Positions 7,397 to 18,881 of a DNA stretch of 20,573 nt are shown here, in pieces. Numbering within the stretch: the first letter of the stretch is position 1; every line of letters starts with the position of its first letter. Position numbers and translations under genes: made by a program. The notes under the pieces were generated by a model. The model did no database searches, had not been told where the DNA came from, and saw nothing but the letters and a program-made list of their open reading frames with translations. Source of the DNA: a virus; the IMG/VR virus record IMGVR_UViG_3300030329_004782, positions 1-20,573 of that record. The stretch is one strand, 5' to 3'.

Positions 7397-7642
7397 TTAG
7401 TTTTCGATTAGAAGGGTCTCTAGTCGCTTAAAACCCTCATCTATCTTAGATTCTATTTTTGCGACACTTACTTCTAACTCCTGTATAGCCTCTATGTTCT
7501 TATTTATTTTTATAGAGTGGGTATTGGTATCATTTTCAAAAGAGTCTACTTTGTTTGACATAATGCCTTGAGTGTATATGCATGTAGCCAGTATTGTTAA
7601 TATTGTAATAACAGTACCTAAAGATATTTTCTTATCAATCAT
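7397..7642 (-). CDS. N-anchored coiled-coil membrane protein, spanin/holin candidate (81 aa)
   Basis: Residues about 6-25 (ISLGTVITILTILATCIYTQ) form a single transmembrane helix with a basic start (MIDKK). Residues 30-80 form an acidic coiled coil (IEAIQELEVSVAKIESKID, then FKRLETLLIEN). The topology resembles small holins and i-spanin-like proteins. AAAGGA precedes the ATG, and the gene overlaps the lysozyme stop by four bases (ATGA), tying the two translationally. There is no lipobox or partner lipoprotein, so a full two-component spanin is not shown. Confidence 0.55.
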   Translation of the reverse strand: MIDKKISLGTVITILTILATCIYTQGIMSNKVDSFENDTNTHSIKINKNIEAIQELEVSVAKIESKIDEGFKRLETLLIEN

Positions 7643-8061
7643 TCTAATCCTTTAATTATATCACTTAATCTTTTAGCTCTGTTTGGAGTCTGTTTACTCC
7701 ACCTTGAATCAAGCATTTCAATAGCAGCTAAGCCATAATCACCCTCTTTTAATGCTTGCAAAAATCTTTTAAATTTAGAAACTCCCGAAACACCCATTTG
7801 ATAAGCCATTTCATAGACTACCTCCCTTGCCTCTTCAGGCAAATCCTCTATAAATTCAAATCTATCATTAACTCTTTTCACTAAAACTTCTAATTTTCTT
7901 TCTAGTATTATATCACATATATCTTCTTCTAAAGCAAGGTCTTTAATTGCAAATCCATAACCAATAGTATCAATATCAAGAGTATCTTTATAAACTCTGG
8001 CCCTATAACCTTCAGACAATTTAATAGCATCTTTAAATTTATTTGAAATATCACTAGACAT
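7639..8061 (-). CDS. T4-type lysozyme endolysin (GH24)
   Basis: This enzyme should cut the glycan strand of peptidoglycan between MurNAc and GlcNAc at the end of infection. The catalytic triad of T4 lysozyme is present at identical spacing: E17, D26 and T32 in SEGYRARVYKDTLDIDTIGY. The later helix EEAREVVYEMAYQMGVSG and the C-terminal SRWSKQTPNRAKRL motif are also typical of the family. It has 140 residues, slightly shorter than T4 lysozyme (164). No signal peptide or SAR helix is seen, so release depends on a holin. The start is supported by AAGGAG and overlaps the upstream stop as TAATG. Confidence 0.9.
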   Translation of the reverse strand: MSSDISNKFKDAIKLSEGYRARVYKDTLDIDTIGYGFAIKDLALEEDICDIILERKLEVLVKRVNDRFEFIEDLPEEAREVVYEMAYQMGVSGVSKFKRFLQALKEGDYGLAAIEMLDSRWSKQTPNRAKRLSDIIKGLE

Positions 8062-8280: not shown

Positions 8281-8511
8281 TTAACTATCACTATTCCAAT
8301 CTGATTTAGCAAGTTCAGTTAAAATCTCGCTATGGTTATATGTTGTTAATCCATTAAAACAAGATGGAGTATCGCCATCCCATTTTAATATTGCTTTAGA
8401 ACCATCTAAAGTCTTTTTTAATGTATTCATACTTGTTTGTATAGCATTTTCAATCATCTCATCTGTTATATCAGATACATTAATTATTATCCATTTTCTA
8501 TTCTCAAACAT
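8281..8511 (-). CDS. Hypothetical protein after the LamG gene (76 aa)
   Basis: Not recognised. A beta-like start (NRKWIIINVSDIT) is followed by helices (MIENAIQTSMNTLKKTL). The middle segment AILKWDGDTPSCFNG is followed by THSEILTEL-type text and an acidic end. This looks like a small folded protein, possibly a tail-fibre chaperone or assembly partner of the LamG protein, because the start overlaps that gene's stop as TAATG. That role is inference from coupling. AGGAGAAAC lies just upstream of the ATG, inside the LamG gene. Confidence 0.55.
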   Translation of the reverse strand: MFENRKWIIINVSDITDEMIENAIQTSMNTLKKTLDGSKAILKWDGDTPSCFNGLTTYNHSEILTELAKSDWNSDS

Positions 8512-9605
8512 TATGGTGTTTCTCCTACAAAATCAGATGCATCCATATTAACCACCTCACCTGCATTTCCTCCGACTTCTTGTACTGTAACAGAATCAGC
8601 TACTGTAAAATTTGTTGCAGCCGCAGTAGGACTTCTAAACCCTAAATACATCGTTGAAGCTGATGCTTGGAATACAAATTCAGTTCCACCAGTAGTTATA
8701 GATTGAGAATAAGCATCTGTGCCTGATAAACCAGTATTTGTTGATACTTCTACTTTTGGAGTAGCTCCTGAATTAATAGTAGCATTATAAAAAACTTTAT
8801 AAATTTTACCTGCAGTGCAACTTATAGCTGATTGATTATTTTCATTAGAACTTGGAGTAGTATTTGCTGCAGTAAAGCCAGTTCCATCTACTGAATGAGA
8901 ATCAAAATCTGCATTAGTAAAGGAAGAATGTAATTGAGCTCCTAATGTTGGAGATGCTTCATCATTAATTAAACCATTTGATGTGAAGTATTTATCATAT
9001 CTACCATCACCCATTCTCCACCATTGAGTTAGATTTCCTGCTTTAGACCAATTCTTATGGTCAAAAGGTTCTCTACCATTATATATTTGTTTTGCTTGGC
9101 TTGATGATAATGCAATATTATAAACTGCTATCTCTGATATATTCCCGTCAAACTCATTAACTGTTCCATTAGTTCCTTGTCCTGCAATAGTATTAATAGT
9201 TAGATTATTATCACCAACATTATTTGCAACAGAACAAACAATTCCGTTTTGATACATTGTAACAGTACCTGAACTTACTATTACTGCATAATGATGCCAA
9301 TTTGTATCAGTTACTATTAAAGTACCAGTTGCATTATCACCACCTGTATCTGACTCTATTTGCAATTTATCATTAGATTCGAATCGAATATGCCTACTTC
9401 CATTAGTTGCAGTACTTCCTAAAACAGTATGTATTACACCAGTTGCATTCCTCTTGCACCAAAACACAAAAGAAAAATCAGCATCATGAACACTATACTC
9501 TATTTCAGGTATTCTAATATTATCATCAGTACCATCAAATGCTAATGAATATTCATCTCTGAATGAATCCCCGCCTAATATTGTCATTGCTCTTGTAGGA
9601 AACAT
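8511..9605 (-). CDS. LamG/concanavalin-like virion protein, probable adhesin
   Basis: Residues about 18-180 carry the laminin-G/LamG jelly-roll pattern: LAFDGTDDNIRIPE, FSFVFWCKRN, TNWHHYAVIVSSGTVTMYQNG, FDGNISEIAVYNIALSSSQ. This fold commonly binds sugars and occurs in phage tail and surface-decoration proteins. A short linker with QWWRMGDG follows. Residues about 230-350 form a second beta-rich domain (AISCTAGKIYKVFYNATINSG, then VEVSTNTGLSG and TMYLGFRS), similar to carbohydrate-binding sandwich modules. It is probably involved in host recognition or head/tail decoration. The start overlaps the upstream stop as TAATG. It lies between a virion-like gene and the lysis genes. Confidence 0.7.
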   Translation of the reverse strand: MFPTRAMTILGGDSFRDEYSLAFDGTDDNIRIPEIEYSVHDADFSFVFWCKRNATGVIHTVLGSTATNGSRHIRFESNDKLQIESDTGGDNATGTLIVTDTNWHHYAVIVSSGTVTMYQNGIVCSVANNVGDNNLTINTIAGQGTNGTVNEFDGNISEIAVYNIALSSSQAKQIYNGREPFDHKNWSKAGNLTQWWRMGDGRYDKYFTSNGLINDEASPTLGAQLHSSFTNADFDSHSVDGTGFTAANTTPSSNENNQSAISCTAGKIYKVFYNATINSGATPKVEVSTNTGLSGTDAYSQSITTGGTEFVFQASASTMYLGFRSPTAAATNFTVADSVTVQEVGGNAGEVVNMDASDFVGETP

Positions 9606-10223: not shown

Positions 10224-13200
10224 CTAATTGGATTTTTTCCCGCTACCCATTCCAATATATCTTGTAACTCTGTCTAAATTTATTATATCTTTTTGATATT
10301 TTGTGAAATAACCATTCTTGATTGCATCACTTGCCCATGCATCCTCAATAGTATCCCAATCATCAAAATCTTTAAAAGCTTCATTCCATATATCTAAAAC
10401 TTTCTGAAAGTTTTTTCCTTCTCTTGAAACAGCTCCAGTCTTTGTTCTTGCTTGAATACTTCTGTAAAGAGAGTCACTCACTTTATTTAATTTAGCAAGT
10501 TTATATGCTGTATAATCTATAAGAAACTTATCTTTCTCGCTCATATCATCTGGATTTTTCCAATTTCCAGATTCATCCATTGCAACACCTATAAATTCAT
10601 TAAATAACTTTTTAGAAGCCCTACTAACAGTATTTGTCAATACTTCCATTGGCTTAAATCCATTTCTCTCTAAGGCATCAAATACTTCAGGAACAAATTT
10701 CTCTAGTTCTGGTTCAAAATTTTTAAATTTCTTTCCAAATATAGGCTCTAGTTTATCAGAACCATACTTATTTATAGCTCTTTGATATATACTTGGGTCA
10801 ATATATGATTCTATAACCTTATCCATTAGTTCTCTTCCCTCGTATCTTGTCATTCCTTTATGAACTGGGAGAGCCCATGCAAAACTATTTCCTTTTAACG
10901 AAAAGGGAACAAACCTTTCTGAAAATCCACTAGCCCATCCACTAGGACCTTCACCTCTCCATTCTGAGGGAAAATCTGATGTACTATAGCCTGTCACAAG
11001 TTCATACACATATCCTACCATCGGGGAAGACTTTCTTTTAAATGTATTAATGGGACCTGCAAACCCATCAAAATATCCTGCTATTTCTTTATACTGCTTA
11101 CCGAAGCTAGTATAATATCTTTGGTCTGTAGTCCACTCTTTCCCACTCGATTCAGCCAATGCTCTATATAATGGAGTTATATCAGCAGACCATTGCTCTC
11201 CAGTTTCATTCTCCCACATATATGGCTTATCCCCTTTTTCTTCATCTCCATATTTCTCATATATAGCAAGTTGTAGTAACTGTTGTGCTCCAAGAACAGA
11301 AAATATGATATTCTTCCAATAATTACTATAAAATTTACCTTTCATATTTCTAAATTTAGGGTCTTTAAATCTTGGGTCTCTTCCAATAAGTCCAAGTCCA
11401 TCTGCAACAGGTTTATATGCCATTGAAGCTGATGAAGTTGTCCAATCAGGAGCAAGTAATATTCTTGTTAACCATTTTTGAACTTTAGGATTACCAAGTA
11501 TTAATCTTGATTCCCATTCTTGACCACCAAAAGCATCATTAATAAGACTTGCAGTAAGTTCTTTTACCTCTGTAGAAGATAACTCTGGATATAAATCTAA
11601 AGATTTATTTACGACATCATTATAAGCAAATGCTTTTAGTCCTGAATGATAATGATTCCATAATCCTTTTTGAAATGCTATTATAGGATAATAAGCTGCT
11701 TGTATAGAATTTTTCCAAATAGGGCTATCAAACCAATCTTTAAACCCATCTCTTTGATTTATCCATGTACCAGTATGATTATCTAAGTTAGGATGCTCAA
11801 TTTGCAATCCATGCATTATCATATCTTCATAAAAAGCCTCATCTTTTATAAGCTCTAGTCCTACTCTGTATGGAGCTCTAAATAATTCAGTTTTGTTTGT
11901 TGTTGGATTCTTTTCACCAAACAAGAATATCCCTCTAATTGGATTTTTCCCAGCAAGAACAGCTTGCGAGCTTTCAGTAAGAGCTATATGATGGAAAAAA
12001 GACACTGATAATTGGAATGTCTTTTGTACAGCATTTACTTTATCATAAGCTTTCCCTATATTAATTAATCCTTCTGGACTCATATCATATTGATACTTCT
12101 TTAACATTTTTAATACAGGTAGAACATCTGGATGAACTCTAACCCCAAAACTTGTTGGCTGCACAAATCCATTTTCATCTTTTTTCCCAAAGATTCTATT
12201 TGCTAAAGGATGGTCAAATCTTACATAATTAGAAGGAGCTTTTTTATTGTCTGGAACAATCATTGGATTACCATCTATATCTGTAACCTTAGATAATTTA
12301 TCTAAAAACAATTTATTAGTAGCCATGCTCCAGTTAGTATTAATATATTTATTATATAATACAACAGGGTCTTGGCTTATAGGAACTAATCCAGCATCTT
12401 TAGCATCTTGTAATGTAGGTAATTTTCTTTTCTTTGCATTGGGACTATTCTTAATAATATCAATAGCGGGTCCAAAATCTTTTCCTTTGCCTGTAGTAAC
12501 ATAAAAGTGAGGTAAGTAATTTTCTAAAAATTGTATATATTCACCTTCAGCTCCTGTAGCTTCAGCTAAAAGTTCATTAATATCATTTCTAGTTTTTTCT
12601 ATTGCAATTTTATATTCCTTCTTTGCTTTTTCTTTAGCTGGAGTCATCCTACTTTTTACATCAACAATAGTATCCCCTTCAATCATTATATTGCCTATGC
12701 CTTCAATAGAAGCTCCTATATCAAATCTATCTAATTCATTAGGAACGGTCTTGGTCCACTCTGAGGCTACCATATTAGCCTTGCTGATTTCAAGTTTTCT
12801 TTTTCTAATTTTCTCTAAAAAGATTCTATGAGCTTTATCTTGTAGCATGTAAGTATCATTTAAGAAATCCAATTCATGCTTAGGGATTGATGTCCCCCCT
12901 TTAGATATTATATAATCTATTTGTTCTAAATCTGCGTCAGTAAAAGGTTTTTTCTTTCCAGCTTTATACTTATTCTCAAGCAATTTAAATAAATGTATAA
13001 TTGGAGGAGGAATCATAGAGCTATATAATTGTCCGTATACTTCATGAGATACAGATAAGCCTTCATCTTCTAATTGTTTCTTTAGTTTTTTAGCAATTTT
13101 CAATCTTTTATCTAAATTGGATATATCACGCTTAGTTCTACCAAATGGATTCTTTTTAGCAAATACTATCTGTTTTTGAGTATCAGATATAGTTTTATTT

Positions 13201-16200
13201 AATCTAAGAATAGTATCTTTTTTTACTTCTATTTGATACACTTTTTCATCTCTTAATATTTTAGCTTTTTCATTTTTATATAATTTTAAATCTGAATTTT
13301 CTTTAGATGTTCTATTCTTCTTCCCCTCAAGTGCAGTTATTTTACTATCTACAATATTCAATTTCCCTTTAAATGAACGAGCTGATTCAGCTATATCCTT
13401 CTCTGCAGAAAGTATTTCGTCTTTATCTTTTTTAATCTTCCCTCTAATATTACTTTGAACTCTCCGAATCTGCCCTAATTTTATTCGCTCTTCTGCGGTA
13501 ATAGTCTTATTAAATTCTTTCTTATTTAAATCTGATACCATTTTATCAAGCTCAAGAAGCTTATCAGGTAATGTTTCAGCTTTAACTTCTCCAGTTTTCT
13601 TTTCAGGGGGTTTAGGTTTAGTCTTTTTAGGTTTGACTATAGTAGGTTTAGAGACTGGGGGTTTTTCAGGATAAATAACACTTCCAAATTTAGCATTATC
13701 AAATCCCTCTATGCCTCTCATATCTATACCATCATAACCTAGTCTTCTCATAAGTCTTGTTGAAGCTGTTTCTGTATTGAGCCCTCCGAAACCATCATTA
13801 GCCTCTATCTCTGCTCTAACCTCTTGGATGACCTCATCTACGATTTTTGGTGAGGCTTTTAATCCTGTCCAATACTCTAGACGCTTTGATATTCCAGTTG
13901 GATTATCTCTCCAACTGATGGAGTTTGGATTGTTTTTAGCATCATAATCTCCTAGTCTATAGGATGCCTCATTTATATATCTCAAAATCCAATGAAGTTC
14001 GTTTGCCATTCCGAAATTACCGCCTGCAGGTATAATTTCTGTTAAAGGACTTCCATCTTTCTTCTTACCAACAACTCTTGTCATGTCAAAGGGTCTAAAT
14101 AAATTCTTACCCTCTAAATTTATTACTGTTATTGGTCTGTCTCCACCCTCACGACTTTTTGCGTGTTTTTTAGCATCTTTCTTGCTTCCAAAAAAATATG
14201 TTCCAGAACCGAAATGTCCAGTTTCTCTACCAAACATCATATTTATATTATCTTTTTTAGATACTCCTTTGCCTGATTGATATCCTACATTAACTTTAGG
14301 TTCTACTTTAGGTTTGGCTGTAGCAGGGACCTCTTTCTTGGCTTCAGATAGTTTTTTTCGATATTCAGAAAAGCTGCCTATATCTAGTCTGTCTAAAAGA
14401 TTGCTTAATTCTGTTTTAGCATCCTTTTTATTTCCTTTTACTTTACCATCTATAATACTTAAAAACTTTTCACCTTCTAATAGGTTGCTAAATTCTGTTG
14501 CCTCTATAGGAGCTTTAGGAGTTATTTTAGAAGGTTTAGAGACTGGGGGTTTTTCAGGATAAATAACACTTCCATAAGAAGCATTATCTAACCCCTTTAT
14601 TCCTCTAACATCAATACCATCATATCCTGCTTTTCTCATAACTCTAGTTGAAGCTGATTCTATATTAATATTAGGGTCAGAAGTTATTTTTTTCCTTTCA
14701 TTAAAATTATATTTTTCATTAAATGCTTTTATATCTTTTTTAGTTTCTAAAATAATTCGCTGCACATCTTTTTTAGTAACCTTTACTCCTATATCATTTA
14801 ACTGTGTAACTATTTTATCTATTGTCAAACCAGGAGTACGACCTCCCTGAGCTCTGCTATTTATAGCTTTAAGTACATCGTGAAGTTCTATACCAGCTTC
14901 TCTTTGTGATATTTTCATTGGGGTAGGAGGGTCACCTTTTTTCTCTCCTGGTATTTTTGCCGTACTAGATGTATACTCTTCTGGTCTAAATAGATTTTTC
15001 CCAGTTACATCAATTTCTGTTACTTGTCTATCTTTTTTATAGGATTTTGCAGCATCTTTCCCTCCAAAAAAATATTCACCAGTACCAAAATGACCAGTTC
15101 CATGACCTCCATATCCAATACTTTCTGAAATTTCACCTCTCTCACCACTCCTATATCCTACATTCTCTTTAGGTTCTACTTTAGGCTCTAGTTTAGTGTC
15201 TTTAGCTTTAGTTTCTTTAGGTCTAGGCTCTTTTCTAATTTTAACAATAGATAATCTTTCTACAGGAATGTCAAGCTCGTACTCCATTTTCTTTGCCCAT
15301 GCTATAGCATCATTAATACTTTCAAAAGAATATATTTCCCCTTCACCATATTTTTTTCCAGTAGCTTGTTGCCTCCAAAGTCTTCTATCGGGACTAGATG
15401 GTTTTATTCCTTCTTTTTTTATTGTTTCTCCCGCAAATGTAACATGATAAACTACCCCCTTCTCTGATTTATGCTTAGGAGATTCTTGCATTTTCACAAC
15501 CCTTCTCCCATCTTTATATGTAGGAGAAGTTTTTGGAATTAACTCTTCAAGACTTACTACTTCTATAATATCTTCAGCAGGTATTTTCTGATTCTTATCT
15601 TTTGTTCTATACCATTTTCCTTCATTTGGTCCCATTGCACTTCTTTGAATTGGGGTGCCATCAACAATATCAATATCTTCTTCCCAAATACTATCTTTAT
15701 CTTTCTTGGTTTCTTTAGGTTTAGTTACTTTAGTTTCTACTTTAGGTTTAGTAGGAACTTCCTCTAGTGGTTTTTCTACAGAAGGTGGTTTTGCAATAAT
15801 GCCTTTATCTATTAACGAGATTTCTGCAAATGATGATAATGCGATTTGAGCTTCCTGTAAAGTTGGATATACCTCAGCATCTATAACTTTATTATTTTTA
15901 TCAATAACTTGAACAACATGATTTTCGCCCACCTCTTCTATAGTTACTTCCTTGACCTTATCGGGATTAATAGCCTTCTTATGAGATTCTTTTTTAGATA
16001 AATCAAGAACTTTTGGTTCTACTGTAGGTTCTACTACAGGGTCTACCTTTGTTTCTTTCGCAGCTTTCTTTCCTTCTTTTAAAAGAGGAGGTTCTACAAC
16101 TTCAAACTCAGCCCACTCCGCTACCTCTCTAATCAGTCTTTCTTTAGAGCTTTCAACTACATTTTTCATATTATCAGGAATGCCCCACTTTTTCATGAAT

Positions 16201-17189
16201 TTTTCAGTAGACATCCCTCTAATAACAATATCATCAATCATTATATCCTGAAAATACTTGCTATGAAATTGCTTATCACTCCATTTATGTATAGTTAAGG
16301 ACTTCCCGTTTATTTTATTTTGCTTATAAGTATTATATTTAGCCCTAGCAGGACTAATGAGAAATGGAGCTCCACCTAATAACGATTGTGTAGCAGCTCC
16401 TGCTACTGGGCTCCCTGTTACATCATAAACTTTATCTCCAATGAATTTTACCCCCTGCATGTAATATTCCCATGGCAATGTTATAATTCTGACACCTAAA
16501 TCACCACTTTCTGTCCTTGGAATATATGTCATTTTTTCTTGTAATTCTGCAATCCATTCTTCTTGTAAATTTGGGTCTATCCCTTCTATAAGTCCAATAT
16601 TAGCAAGAACTCTCTCAGTTCCACCTATAATACCAGAACTTCCCCATCCAATCATCCCAGTCCCTATAGATAATGGAATCTCCACTAGACCACCAATAGC
16701 ATCTAAAAATGGGTCTGGTGAAGCTCCAGGAACATCTGCCACTTTCAATGATGTGGCCACTTCTTCTGTTGGAGATATTTTATCTAAAATGCTTCTATCA
16801 ACTACTCCTTCAGACTTTATTAAATTGTCTGATTTTATTAAATCATCTGGAAGTTCAATAGGTTGGGATACTTCTTCTATTATACCATTCTTATTATTAC
16901 TAACAAGCTCAATCTCTTTATTTAGCAAATCTTCTGCAGGAGTTTCTACTATATTATTATATTGATTTTCTTCGGTATCTAAAGGGATTTTTATTTTTTC
17001 AGAAAAAAAAGCAGAATCTCCCAATACATCTTCTCCATGTCTATCTACAAGAAGTTTTCGTATTTGCTCTGCATTTGCAGGATTTTGCATTTTATTCTTG
17101 AATTTTTCATAGTCCCCAAATTCTGAAGAGTATTGGGGATAAGCCTCATTCACTGTATCATAAATAAGCTTTAAATTAGTTTCACTCAT
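10224..17189 (-). CDS. Giant polyvalent virion protein with three ART-like segments (2,321 aa)
   Basis: This is probably an internal virion protein ejected with the DNA. Residues 1-150 are hydrophilic. Residues about 163-190 and 260-283 are glycine-rich hydrophobic segments that may enter membranes. Proline/lysine/glutamate linkers (PKVEPK-type) separate modules. Residues 578-652 (VVYHVTF through the AIAWAKKM helix), 676-880 and 967-1176 resemble ADP-ribosyltransferase folds of phage polyvalent proteins; the last two are diverged duplicates (TGHFG(T/S)GxYFFG and GYDGIDxRG). Residues 1200-1375 are coiled coil. Residues 1380-2321 form one large helical region with NYLPHFY (1558) and LLAPDWTTSS (1911), reminiscent of large-polyvalent-protein domains such as LPD38. 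No lytic transglycosylase or polymerase motif was seen. No strong ribosome binding site precedes the ATG. Roles are inference. Confidence 0.75.
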   Translation of the reverse strand: MSETNLKLIYDTVNEAYPQYSSEFGDYEKFKNKMQNPANAEQIRKLLVDRHGEDVLGDSAFFSEKIKIPLDTEENQYNNIVETPAEDLLNKEIELVSNNKNGIIEEVSQPIELPDDLIKSDNLIKSEGVVDRSILDKISPTEEVATSLKVADVPGASPDPFLDAIGGLVEIPLSIGTGMIGWGSSGIIGGTERVLANIGLIEGIDPNLQEEWIAELQEKMTYIPRTESGDLGVRIITLPWEYYMQGVKFIGDKVYDVTGSPVAGAATQSLLGGAPFLISPARAKYNTYKQNKINGKSLTIHKWSDKQFHSKYFQDIMIDDIVIRGMSTEKFMKKWGIPDNMKNVVESSKERLIREVAEWAEFEVVEPPLLKEGKKAAKETKVDPVVEPTVEPKVLDLSKKESHKKAINPDKVKEVTIEEVGENHVVQVIDKNNKVIDAEVYPTLQEAQIALSSFAEISLIDKGIIAKPPSVEKPLEEVPTKPKVETKVTKPKETKKDKDSIWEEDIDIVDGTPIQRSAMGPNEGKWYRTKDKNQKIPAEDIIEVVSLEELIPKTSPTYKDGRRVVKMQESPKHKSEKGVVYHVTFAGETIKKEGIKPSSPDRRLWRQQATGKKYGEGEIYSFESINDAIAWAKKMEYELDIPVERLSIVKIRKEPRPKETKAKDTKLEPKVEPKENVGYRSGERGEISESIGYGGHGTGHFGTGEYFFGGKDAAKSYKKDRQVTEIDVTGKNLFRPEEYTSSTAKIPGEKKGDPPTPMKISQREAGIELHDVLKAINSRAQGGRTPGLTIDKIVTQLNDIGVKVTKKDVQRIILETKKDIKAFNEKYNFNERKKITSDPNINIESASTRVMRKAGYDGIDVRGIKGLDNASYGSVIYPEKPPVSKPSKITPKAPIEATEFSNLLEGEKFLSIIDGKVKGNKKDAKTELSNLLDRLDIGSFSEYRKKLSEAKKEVPATAKPKVEPKVNVGYQSGKGVSKKDNINMMFGRETGHFGSGTYFFGSKKDAKKHAKSREGGDRPITVINLEGKNLFRPFDMTRVVGKKKDGSPLTEIIPAGGNFGMANELHWILRYINEASYRLGDYDAKNNPNSISWRDNPTGISKRLEYWTGLKASPKIVDEVIQEVRAEIEANDGFGGLNTETASTRLMRRLGYDGIDMRGIEGFDNAKFGSVIYPEKPPVSKPTIVKPKKTKPKPPEKKTGEVKAETLPDKLLELDKMVSDLNKKEFNKTITAEERIKLGQIRRVQSNIRGKIKKDKDEILSAEKDIAESARSFKGKLNIVDSKITALEGKKNRTSKENSDLKLYKNEKAKILRDEKVYQIEVKKDTILRLNKTISDTQKQIVFAKKNPFGRTKRDISNLDKRLKIAKKLKKQLEDEGLSVSHEVYGQLYSSMIPPPIIHLFKLLENKYKAGKKKPFTDADLEQIDYIISKGGTSIPKHELDFLNDTYMLQDKAHRIFLEKIRKRKLEISKANMVASEWTKTVPNELDRFDIGASIEGIGNIMIEGDTIVDVKSRMTPAKEKAKKEYKIAIEKTRNDINELLAEATGAEGEYIQFLENYLPHFYVTTGKGKDFGPAIDIIKNSPNAKKRKLPTLQDAKDAGLVPISQDPVVLYNKYINTNWSMATNKLFLDKLSKVTDIDGNPMIVPDNKKAPSNYVRFDHPLANRIFGKKDENGFVQPTSFGVRVHPDVLPVLKMLKKYQYDMSPEGLINIGKAYDKVNAVQKTFQLSVSFFHHIALTESSQAVLAGKNPIRGIFLFGEKNPTTNKTELFRAPYRVGLELIKDEAFYEDMIMHGLQIEHPNLDNHTGTWINQRDGFKDWFDSPIWKNSIQAAYYPIIAFQKGLWNHYHSGLKAFAYNDVVNKSLDLYPELSSTEVKELTASLINDAFGGQEWESRLILGNPKVQKWLTRILLAPDWTTSSASMAYKPVADGLGLIGRDPRFKDPKFRNMKGKFYSNYWKNIIFSVLGAQQLLQLAIYEKYGDEEKGDKPYMWENETGEQWSADITPLYRALAESSGKEWTTDQRYYTSFGKQYKEIAGYFDGFAGPINTFKRKSSPMVGYVYELVTGYSTSDFPSEWRGEGPSGWASGFSERFVPFSLKGNSFAWALPVHKGMTRYEGRELMDKVIESYIDPSIYQRAINKYGSDKLEPIFGKKFKNFEPELEKFVPEVFDALERNGFKPMEVLTNTVSRASKKLFNEFIGVAMDESGNWKNPDDMSEKDKFLIDYTAYKLAKLNKVSDSLYRSIQARTKTGAVSREGKNFQKVLDIWNEAFKDFDDWDTIEDAWASDAIKNGYFTKYQKDIINLDRVTRYIGMGSGKKSN
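13644..13686 (-). repeat. 43-bp perfect direct repeat, copy 1
   Basis: It is identical base for base to 14532-14574, with both copies on the same strand and in the same reading frame. It encodes the GSVIYPEKPPVSKP end of ART-like copy B and the start of its linker. Identity at every third codon position indicates recent duplication or gene conversion. Confidence 0.9.
13662..14291 (-). repeat. ART-like domain copy B (residues 967-1176 of the giant protein)
   Basis: This is the second of two duplicated modules. It begins NVGYQSGKG, carries TGHFGSGTYFFGSKKDAKKHA at 990-1010 and NLFRP at 1029-1033, and ends with STRLMRRLGYDGIDMRGIEG and FGSVIYPEKPPVSKP. Conserved blocks align one-to-one with copy A, while the middle 100 residues have diverged. 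Confidence 0.6.
14532..14574 (-). repeat. 43-bp perfect direct repeat, copy 2
   Basis: This copy lies 888 bp (296 codons) from copy 1 and encodes the same GSVIYPEKPPVSKP segment at the end of ART-like copy A. Flanking bases differ immediately on both sides. Confidence 0.9.
14550..15164 (-). repeat. ART-like domain copy A (residues 676-880 of the giant protein)
   Basis: This first copy starts NVGYRSGERG, carries TGHFGTGEYFFGGKDAAKSY at 698-717 and NLFRP at 732-736, and ends STRVMRKAGYDGIDVRGIKG and YGSVIYPEKPPVSKP. In many related ART domains the terminal motif is EYVVFxP with a catalytic Glu; here both copies read GSVIYPEK, so catalysis is doubtful. Confidence 0.6.
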
Positions 17190-18290: not shown

Positions 18291-18881
18291 CTAAACTCTA
18301 TCCATATATTCTTCACCTAACATATCATATTGTGCTTCTAAGTCAGCCCATGTATTTCTCATAGATGCCTCTGTTCGTGCTCTTTCACCTGCTATTTGAA
18401 GGGCTAATGCTTCTTCTTTTTGTCTTCCTAGGCTCTTTATATCTTCAGTTTTCTTAGATGTTAAATCTTTTATGGTAGATATTTTCTTATCTACACTAGA
18501 CATCTCAAGACCTGTTTTTGCTCCTACATCTTCTAAGGTTTCAATCTGACCTGCGGTATTTTCTACAAAGGTATCAAGAGCAGTACTTGTCTCTTTATCT
18601 ATTATATCAGTTTGATATTCTTCTAAAGTATCAAAATATGTAGCAATTCCTCTAGTCTTAGCCCCTACTTTCTTTTTCTGGGACTTAACAAGATTTCTTT
18701 GCTTTTTTATTTTCTTATTATGTTTGTCAATTTCCCTATTTTGTTTTCGCCTTTTAGCTTGAGACCCAAAGAATCCTACAAGACCACCAATAATTGCACC
18801 AGGAACAGCTAAAGGACCTGGCAGCGTTGCTCCAGCAGCAGCTCCTTGAAAAGCACCACCCGCATCATCCCATGTAGCCAT
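18291..18881 (-). CDS. gp14-like internal virion/ejection protein (196 aa)
   Basis: The N-terminus has a Gly/Ala-rich hydrophobic segment (residues about 7-40: GGAFQGAAAGATLPGPLAVP, then GAIIGGLVGFFGSQAKRRKQ). A strongly basic patch and a long coiled coil to the C-terminus follow. T7 gp14-type inner-core proteins, which enter the outer membrane during ejection, have this layout; glycine-zipper membrane proteins look similar. The start is supported by AGGGGG and by a one-base TAATG overlap with the preceding gene. It is followed by a hydrophilic protein and the giant protein, in the order of an inner-core set. Sequence identity to gp14 cannot be judged by eye. Confidence 0.6.
   Translation of the reverse strand: MATWDDAGGAFQGAAAGATLPGPLAVPGAIIGGLVGFFGSQAKRRKQNREIDKHNKKIKKQRNLVKSQKKKVGAKTRGIATYFDTLEEYQTDIIDKETSTALDTFVENTAGQIETLEDVGAKTGLEMSSVDKKISTIKDLTSKKTEDIKSLGRQKEEALALQIAGERARTEASMRNTWADLEAQYDMLGEEYMDRV

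What the first reader, a model, noticed from the sequence alone, without database searches (positions are those of the whole stretch)
13662..15458. Three ADP-ribosyltransferase-like segments in one putative ejected protein
Segments at residues 578-652, 676-880 and 967-1176 show ART-like landmarks (VYHVTF or VGY(R/Q)SG, GTGEYFFG, GYDGI, GSVIY). ART-bearing polyvalent proteins are thought to be injected to modify host proteins early. Two adjacent duplicates that both lack the usual terminal Glu (GSVIYPEK instead of EYVVFxP) suggest decoys, binding modules or an unusual active site.
Basis: partly seen in the sequence, partly recalled or inferred. Interest (0 to 1): 0.65.

Follow-up and report, generated by a model that had tools for sequence, protein, structure and literature searches.

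The report
New phage ART-like domain, duplicated
A giant phage protein, probably injected into the bacterium with the DNA, carries two tandem copies of a previously unnamed, virus-restricted relative of ADP-ribosyltransferases; the absence of the 'usual' glutamate is a hallmark of that whole family rather than damage to these two copies.

Summary
Two of the three segments are real ART-like domains. Segments 676-877 and 967-1173 of the 2321-aa protein (ORF 10224-17189, minus strand) are homologous to each other (BLASTP E 1e-42). They belong to a family missing from Pfam, PHROGs and NCBIfam: 71 non-redundant domains, almost all from IMG/VR viral contigs, none found in 50,697 named phages by the queries run. 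Profile comparison links the family to ART-PolyVal (PF18760): hhalign E 4.6e-7, score 49 against at most 18 in 60 shuffles, landmarks in the same order. 'GSVIY' instead of 'EYVVF' is a family trait (Gly in 71/71), and in ART-PolyVal itself that Glu is present in only 5 of 22. The conserved acid there, D of GYDG, is kept in both window copies, as is the strand-2 Tyr. The true oddity is strand 1: His becomes Arg (copy 1) and Gln (copy 2). Segment 578-652 is another recurrent module, truncated here and not shown to be an ART. A 629-bp stretch (85% DNA identity) covering copy 2 is shared with an otherwise unrelated giant protein, so the domain is swapped as a cassette, under purifying selection (dN/dS 0.21). 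Enzyme activity and packaging are inferred. Foldseek against solved structures did not recognise the fold.

The parts
10224..17189 (-). 2321-aa polyvalent-type giant protein (P0001), late/virion gene block
   Evidence: ORF, translation; no Pfam, PHROG or phage tblastn relative over its full length
13671..14291 (-). ART-like copy 2 (residues 967-1173, NVGYQSG...GSVIY); strand-1 Gln971, strand-2 Tyr998, GYDG Asp1153, Asp1164, Gly1169
   Evidence: family alignment; 77% identical to the domain in L001
14559..15164 (-). ART-like copy 1 (residues 676-877, NVGYRSG...GSVIY); strand-1 Arg680, strand-2 Tyr706, GYDG Asp857, Asp868, Gly873; unique His in place of the near-invariant Arg before TGHFG
15207..15458 (-). 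Segment 1, 'YHVT' module (residues 578-661), truncated relative to its homologues; ART status not shown
   Evidence: homologues in L036, L066, L068 and L132-L136; profile comparison with ART at shuffle level
15153..15185 (-). KPKVEPK-type linker repeat before copy 1; 33 nt, 94% identical to 14280-14312
   Evidence: self-blastn
14280..14312 (-). matching linker repeat before copy 2
   Evidence: self-blastn
14514..14666 (-). 3' end of copy 1 plus PEKPPVSKP linker, 83.7% DNA identity to 13626-13778
13626..13778 (-). 3' end of copy 2 plus the same linker; 42 nt over GSVIYPEKPPVSKP identical in both copies
18291..18881 (-). 196-aa glycine-rich/coiled protein upstream; weak hits to internal virion, pilot and tail proteins
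7639..8061 (-). phage lysozyme downstream
   Evidence: Pfam PF00959 E 5.6e-10
8511..9605 (-). LamG (concanavalin-like) appendage protein
   Evidence: PF13385 E 2.1e-20

Best explanation
The 2321-aa protein is a polyvalent effector/ejection-type protein. Residues 676-877 and 967-1173 are two tandem copies of a virus-restricted ART subfamily, sister to ART-PolyVal (H-Y-D type). Likely mode of action (inferred): the protein is packaged and enters the host with the DNA; each copy binds NAD+ through the split beta-sheet formed by strand 1 (Y-H/R/Q-xG) and strand 2 (GTGxYF), and an acidic side chain (D of GYDG and/or the invariant D of DNxxYGSV) polarises the ribose so that ADP-ribose is moved onto a host macromolecule early in infection. 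The module is inherited as a cassette: linkers rich in K/P/E on both sides, intra-protein homogenisation of linkers, and transfer between unrelated giant proteins. Shown here: homology, family-wide conservation, duplication, cassette transfer, purifying selection on copy 2. Inferred: fold, NAD+ use, catalysis, packaging and target.
For: Copies homologous. 71-member family with Tyr of strand 2, Asp of DNxxYGSV and Gly of GSV invariant, none of them in the pattern that brought in most members. An ART-PolyVal profile picks family members next after true ARTs (iE 2.9e-5 to 1e-3, correct register). hhalign E 4.6e-7, score 49.0 against at most 18.2 in 60 shuffles, strands 1, 2, 3, GYDG and last strand collinear. 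PF18760 is over its cut-off elsewhere in 12 of 50 records, often in the same ORF. Sister giants carry LPD38 (7/15) and ART-PolyVal (8/15). Neighbour genes match DNA ejection, virion and tail, holin and endolysin families. dN/dS 0.21 for copy 2 against L001. Best structural match in the viral library is a PolyVal ADP-ribosyltransferase (E 0.018, prob 0.69).
Against: Foldseek against PDB found no ART with either model, even the good one of L012 (pLDDT 89.7, pTM 0.87). The viral-library match has a low TM-score (0.29). No member was seen to reach the PF18760 or DUF3990 cut-off within this domain. Strand-1 His is Arg/Gln in the window copies. I know of no experimental activity for any member.
Confidence: 0.6

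Rival explanations
1. Pseudo-ARTs: the two copies keep the ART fold but have lost transfer activity and serve as NAD+/ADP-ribose binding, target-binding or decoy modules.
For: Strand-1 His replaced by Arg (copy 1) and Gln (copy 2); copy 1 also has His instead of Arg at a 70/71 position. PMC7955679 describes another ART-like family with a divergent active site as probable pseudoenzymes.
Against: GYDG Asp and strand-2 Tyr are kept; Arg at strand 1 is shared by 20 of 23 domains in the surrounding part of the tree, so it is an old state and not a local decay; dN/dS 0.21.
Confidence: 0.25
2. Not ARTs: an unrelated alpha/beta domain whose GTGxYF and GYDGI motifs resemble ARTs by convergence.
For: No PDB ART retrieved by Foldseek; the central helical insert dominates the matches.
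Against: Profile statistics far above shuffles with all landmarks in order; an intermediate domain in L065 (2628-2844) is hit by both profiles.
Confidence: 0.08
3. Purely structural or targeting modules of an ejection protein, kept for virion assembly and not for chemistry.
For: Located in a giant late protein next to a glycine-rich coiled protein.
Against: Stand-alone versions exist as 195-430 aa genes, including in contigs over 300 kb; the module moves between unrelated giants.
Confidence: 0.07

Closest known systems
ART-PolyVal (PF18760), ART of phage polyvalent proteins, Tox-ART-HYD2 clade (PMC5512222)
   Same: Collinear landmarks YHxG, GxGxYF, xxIDLxxxNL, GYDG, last beta strand; same giant proteins, sometimes adjacent in the same ORF (L057, L061); multiple copies per protein are known (up to 12)
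   Different: Below the Pfam cut-off; Gly fixed in the last strand; an invariant Asp 5 residues before it; RxTG(H)FG signature; a helical insert before GYDG; strand-1 His can be Arg or Gln
DUF3990 (PF13151), listed in the ART clan (PMC7955679)
   Same: Sub-threshold hits over the strand-2 region of several family members (E 3e-5 to 1e-3)
   Different: Never over the cut-off; the C-terminal half does not match
Phage T4 Alt/ModA/ModB
   Same: Works-like analogy: Alt is an ART packaged in the head and injected to modify host proteins
   Different: R-S-E clade, different motifs, not in polyvalent proteins (PMC5512222); no test of homology was run here

Membership tests
ART-PolyVal (PF18760) | Pfam gathering score reached within the domain | tested here: not met
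   no hit for the window; 3 of 71 family members, best E 0.025
ART-PolyVal (PF18760) | His in strand 1 | tested here: not met
   Arg680 and Gln971 in the window; His in 47/71 of the family, 23/24 in ART-PolyVal
ART-PolyVal (PF18760) | Tyr (or aromatic) in strand 2 | tested here: met
   Tyr706, Tyr998; 71/71
ART-PolyVal (PF18760) | Asp in strand 5 (taken here as D of GYDG) | tested here: met
   Asp857, Asp1153; D or E in 60/71 of the family; D 21/23 in ART-PolyVal. That this is the 'strand 5 D' of PMC5512222 is my inference
ADP-ribosyltransferase superfamily | significant profile similarity to a known ART family | tested here: met
   hhalign E 4.6e-7, score 49.0 against at most 18.2 in 60 shuffles; hmmsearch
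ADP-ribosyltransferase superfamily | ART fold | tested here: inconclusive
   secondary-structure order is compatible but there is no PDB ART match; weak PolyVal ART match in BFVD
ADP-ribosyltransferase superfamily | NAD+-dependent transfer | not testable with these tools
   needs biochemistry
Polyvalent proteins | giant multidomain protein with effector and LPD domains | tested here: inconclusive
   window protein has no Pfam LPD hit; 7/15 giants scanned have LPD38, 8/15 ART-PolyVal
Polyvalent proteins | packaged and injected | not testable with these tools
   needs virion mass spectrometry

The most novel reading that the evidence does not exclude
A virus-specific ART subfamily with a rearranged active site (strand-1 His replaceable by Arg or Gln, an extra invariant Asp before the last strand) that is built into giant proteins as cassettes framed by protein-specific repeated tags (AAEQRV, VAPRQQ, PMFQQ, SYQLTP, [KR]YSL). 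The tags would be protease sites that release each effector module separately after injection or during maturation, making the giant protein a phage polyprotein.
Probability: 0.2. Interest if true: 0.75.

Novelty: new variant of a known kind. Interest (0 to 1): 0.5.

Why it matters
It adds an undescribed, virus-restricted ART subfamily to the likely injected-effector repertoire of phages, shows single-domain exchange between otherwise unrelated giant proteins at DNA level, and corrects the idea that absence of a terminal Glu marks inactive copies in this group. If active, it offers a test of ART chemistry without the classical strand-1 His. The repeated inter-module tags make processing of polyvalent proteins directly testable.

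Tried and rejected
Rejected: 'decoys because the terminal Glu is lost' (family-wide Gly; that column is not conserved in ART-PolyVal). Rejected: segment 1 as an ART (profile at shuffle level). Corrected: I first took the His of TGHFG as invariant, but the scan patterns selected for it; a scan on the C-terminal motif alone found members with Ala, Gly or Phe there (TGAFG, TGAYG, TGGYG, DGFFG), so it is not a fixed catalytic residue. Led nowhere: Pfam, PHROG and PDB sequence searches of the window segments, tblastn in named phages with the whole protein and four family domains and one in plasmids, Foldseek on PDB with two models, a text search for the motif. The first shuffle control may have re-read a stale file in some rounds; it was repeated with deletion of the old file. 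The tags were not found in other convincing genes of the loci held.

Full report
Setting. The window is a 20,573-bp IMG/VR virus record. Genes at 0.2-5.5 kb run on the plus strand, with a Sak-like annealing protein, a replication initiator/DnaD-like loader and a Holliday junction resolvase. From 5.5 kb onward the main genes run on the minus strand, with lysozyme, a LamG protein and the 2321-aa giant. The ORF and the residue numbers of the finding are correct.

The two duplicates. Residues 676-900 and 960-1185 align at 40% identity, E 1e-42. Neither hits Pfam or PHROGs convincingly, copy 1 finds nothing in PDB sequences, and neither the whole protein nor copy 2 finds a named phage. Scans of IMG/VR with growing alignments and of GTDB contigs gave 98 domains, 71 non-redundant. 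Only five GTDB contigs were found, all in metagenome-assembled genomes. Most members sit in proteins of 1,100-5,000 aa; others are stand-alone genes of 195-430 aa, including in contigs over 300 kb. Tandem copies also occur in L047.

Family anatomy. Signature: Y[HRQ]xGD ... RxTGHFGxGxYF ... RPxxxIDLxxYNL ... LHDxLKxxN ... (helical insert) ... S[ST]TxxMKxLGY[DEN]G[IV]D ... DNxxYG[ST]V[IV]Y. Strand-1 residue: His 47, Arg 21, Gln 2, Leu 1; window copies Arg and Gln. The GYxG residue is Asp 31, Glu 29, Asn 10, Gln 1; window copies Asp. The Gly of GSVIY and the Asp of DNxxYG are 71/71. The scan patterns bias this set towards TGHFG; a later scan on the C-terminal motif alone returned members with Ala, Gly or Phe at the His of TGHFG, so that His is not invariant. 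The Tyr of strand 2, and the Asp and Gly of the last motif, were not part of the patterns of the scan that gave most of the 71.

Link to ARTs. Twenty-five ART-PolyVal domains were collected from the same loci, starting from PF18760 hits. Their profile recovers family members right after the true ARTs, with iE from 2.9e-5 upwards and in the correct register. hhalign of family against ART-PolyVal: probability 92.6, E 4.6e-7, score 49.0; 60 column-shuffled controls reach at most 18.2. All five landmarks align in order. In ART-PolyVal the strand-1 His (23/24), an aromatic in strand 2 and the D of GYDG (21/23) are conserved; the Glu of EYVVF is not (5/22). PMC5512222 describes these ARTs as H-Y-D; equating its strand-5 Asp with GYDG is my inference. 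AlphaFold models are confident (pLDDT 82.8 and 89.7), with strand order compatible with an ART plus a helical insert, but Foldseek finds no PDB ART and only a weak viral PolyVal ART. The fold is therefore not independently confirmed.

Segment 1. Relatives of residues 578-661 occur in giants that also carry the ART-like domain (L036, L066, L068) and in L132-L136. They share YHVT...G[LI]...F[AS]F...DAxxWA...SIV and continue about 40 residues further, which the window copy appears to lack. Comparison with ART-PolyVal is at shuffle level (14.4 against 14.1), so it should be called a separate, probably truncated module.

Cassette behaviour. Window copy 2 and L001 share 84.9% DNA identity over 629 nt, confined to the domain; the rest of the two giants is unrelated by BLASTP. 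Over that domain dN/dS is 0.21. The tree joins copy 2 with L001 (100/100) and copy 1 as their sister (100/97), within a neighbourhood of 23 domains holding 20 Arg, both Gln and the single Leu type (support 91/87). Window copies share linkers at DNA level, with 42 of 42 nt identical over GSVIYPEKPPVSKP although the domains overall have dS about 1: recent homogenisation or recombination through linkers.

Context. In 15 giants scanned, Pfam finds ART-PolyVal in 8 and LPD38 in 7; in L057 and L061 an ART-PolyVal lies directly before the new domain. Neighbouring genes include DNA ejection, virion, tail, holin and endolysin families. This supports polyvalent ejection-type proteins, but the window protein itself has no LPD hit and packaging is untested.

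Side result: punctuation peptides. The N- and C-flanks of the same domain resemble each other far more than re-paired flanks (sum 1412 against 988 +/- 35, 0 of 2000). Examples are AAEQR seven times in L036 (six followed by V), APRQQ four to five times in L065/L066/L068, PMFQQ three times in L002, SYQLTP in L001, [KR][YF]SL six times in L061. Codons vary within repeated tags, which suggests selection on the peptide; cleavage sites are one explanation, repeated insertion through linkers another.

Verdict. A new subfamily of a known kind, duplicated in one giant phage protein; probably injected ARTs (0.6), possibly pseudo-ARTs (0.25).

Noticed in passing
L036 (residues 1375-2909), L047, L065, L066, L068, L002, L001, L061: Protein-specific short peptides (AAEQRV, VAPRQQ, PMFQQ, SYQLTP, [KR]YSL) recur at module borders inside the giant proteins, with codon variation; candidate protease sites or recombination linkers.
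   Followed up: partly
window 13626-13778 and 14514-14666: The 3' ends and linkers of the two copies are much more alike (dS 0.27) than the domains as a whole (dS about 1), a sign of gene conversion or linker recombination.
   Followed up: partly
L073 (320,934-bp contig): A relative of the domain in an 862-aa ORF lies within a few kb of two separate ART-PolyVal ORFs of 209 and 222 aa.
   Followed up: no
alignment A3 members: Weak PADLOC hits to candidate defence models PDC-M13B (best E 1.3e-5, 5 members) and one sub-threshold hit to NCBIfam AcrIF11 anti-CRISPR ADP-ribosyltransferase (E 0.011).
   Followed up: no
L036 residues 2673-2716: A GNAT-like stretch (weak Pfam hit) lies between two AAEQRV tags, between the ART-like domain and a YHVT module.
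   Followed up: no
L065 residues 2628-2844: An intermediate domain hit by both the ART-PolyVal and the new-family profiles follows directly after a copy of the new domain.
   Followed up: no
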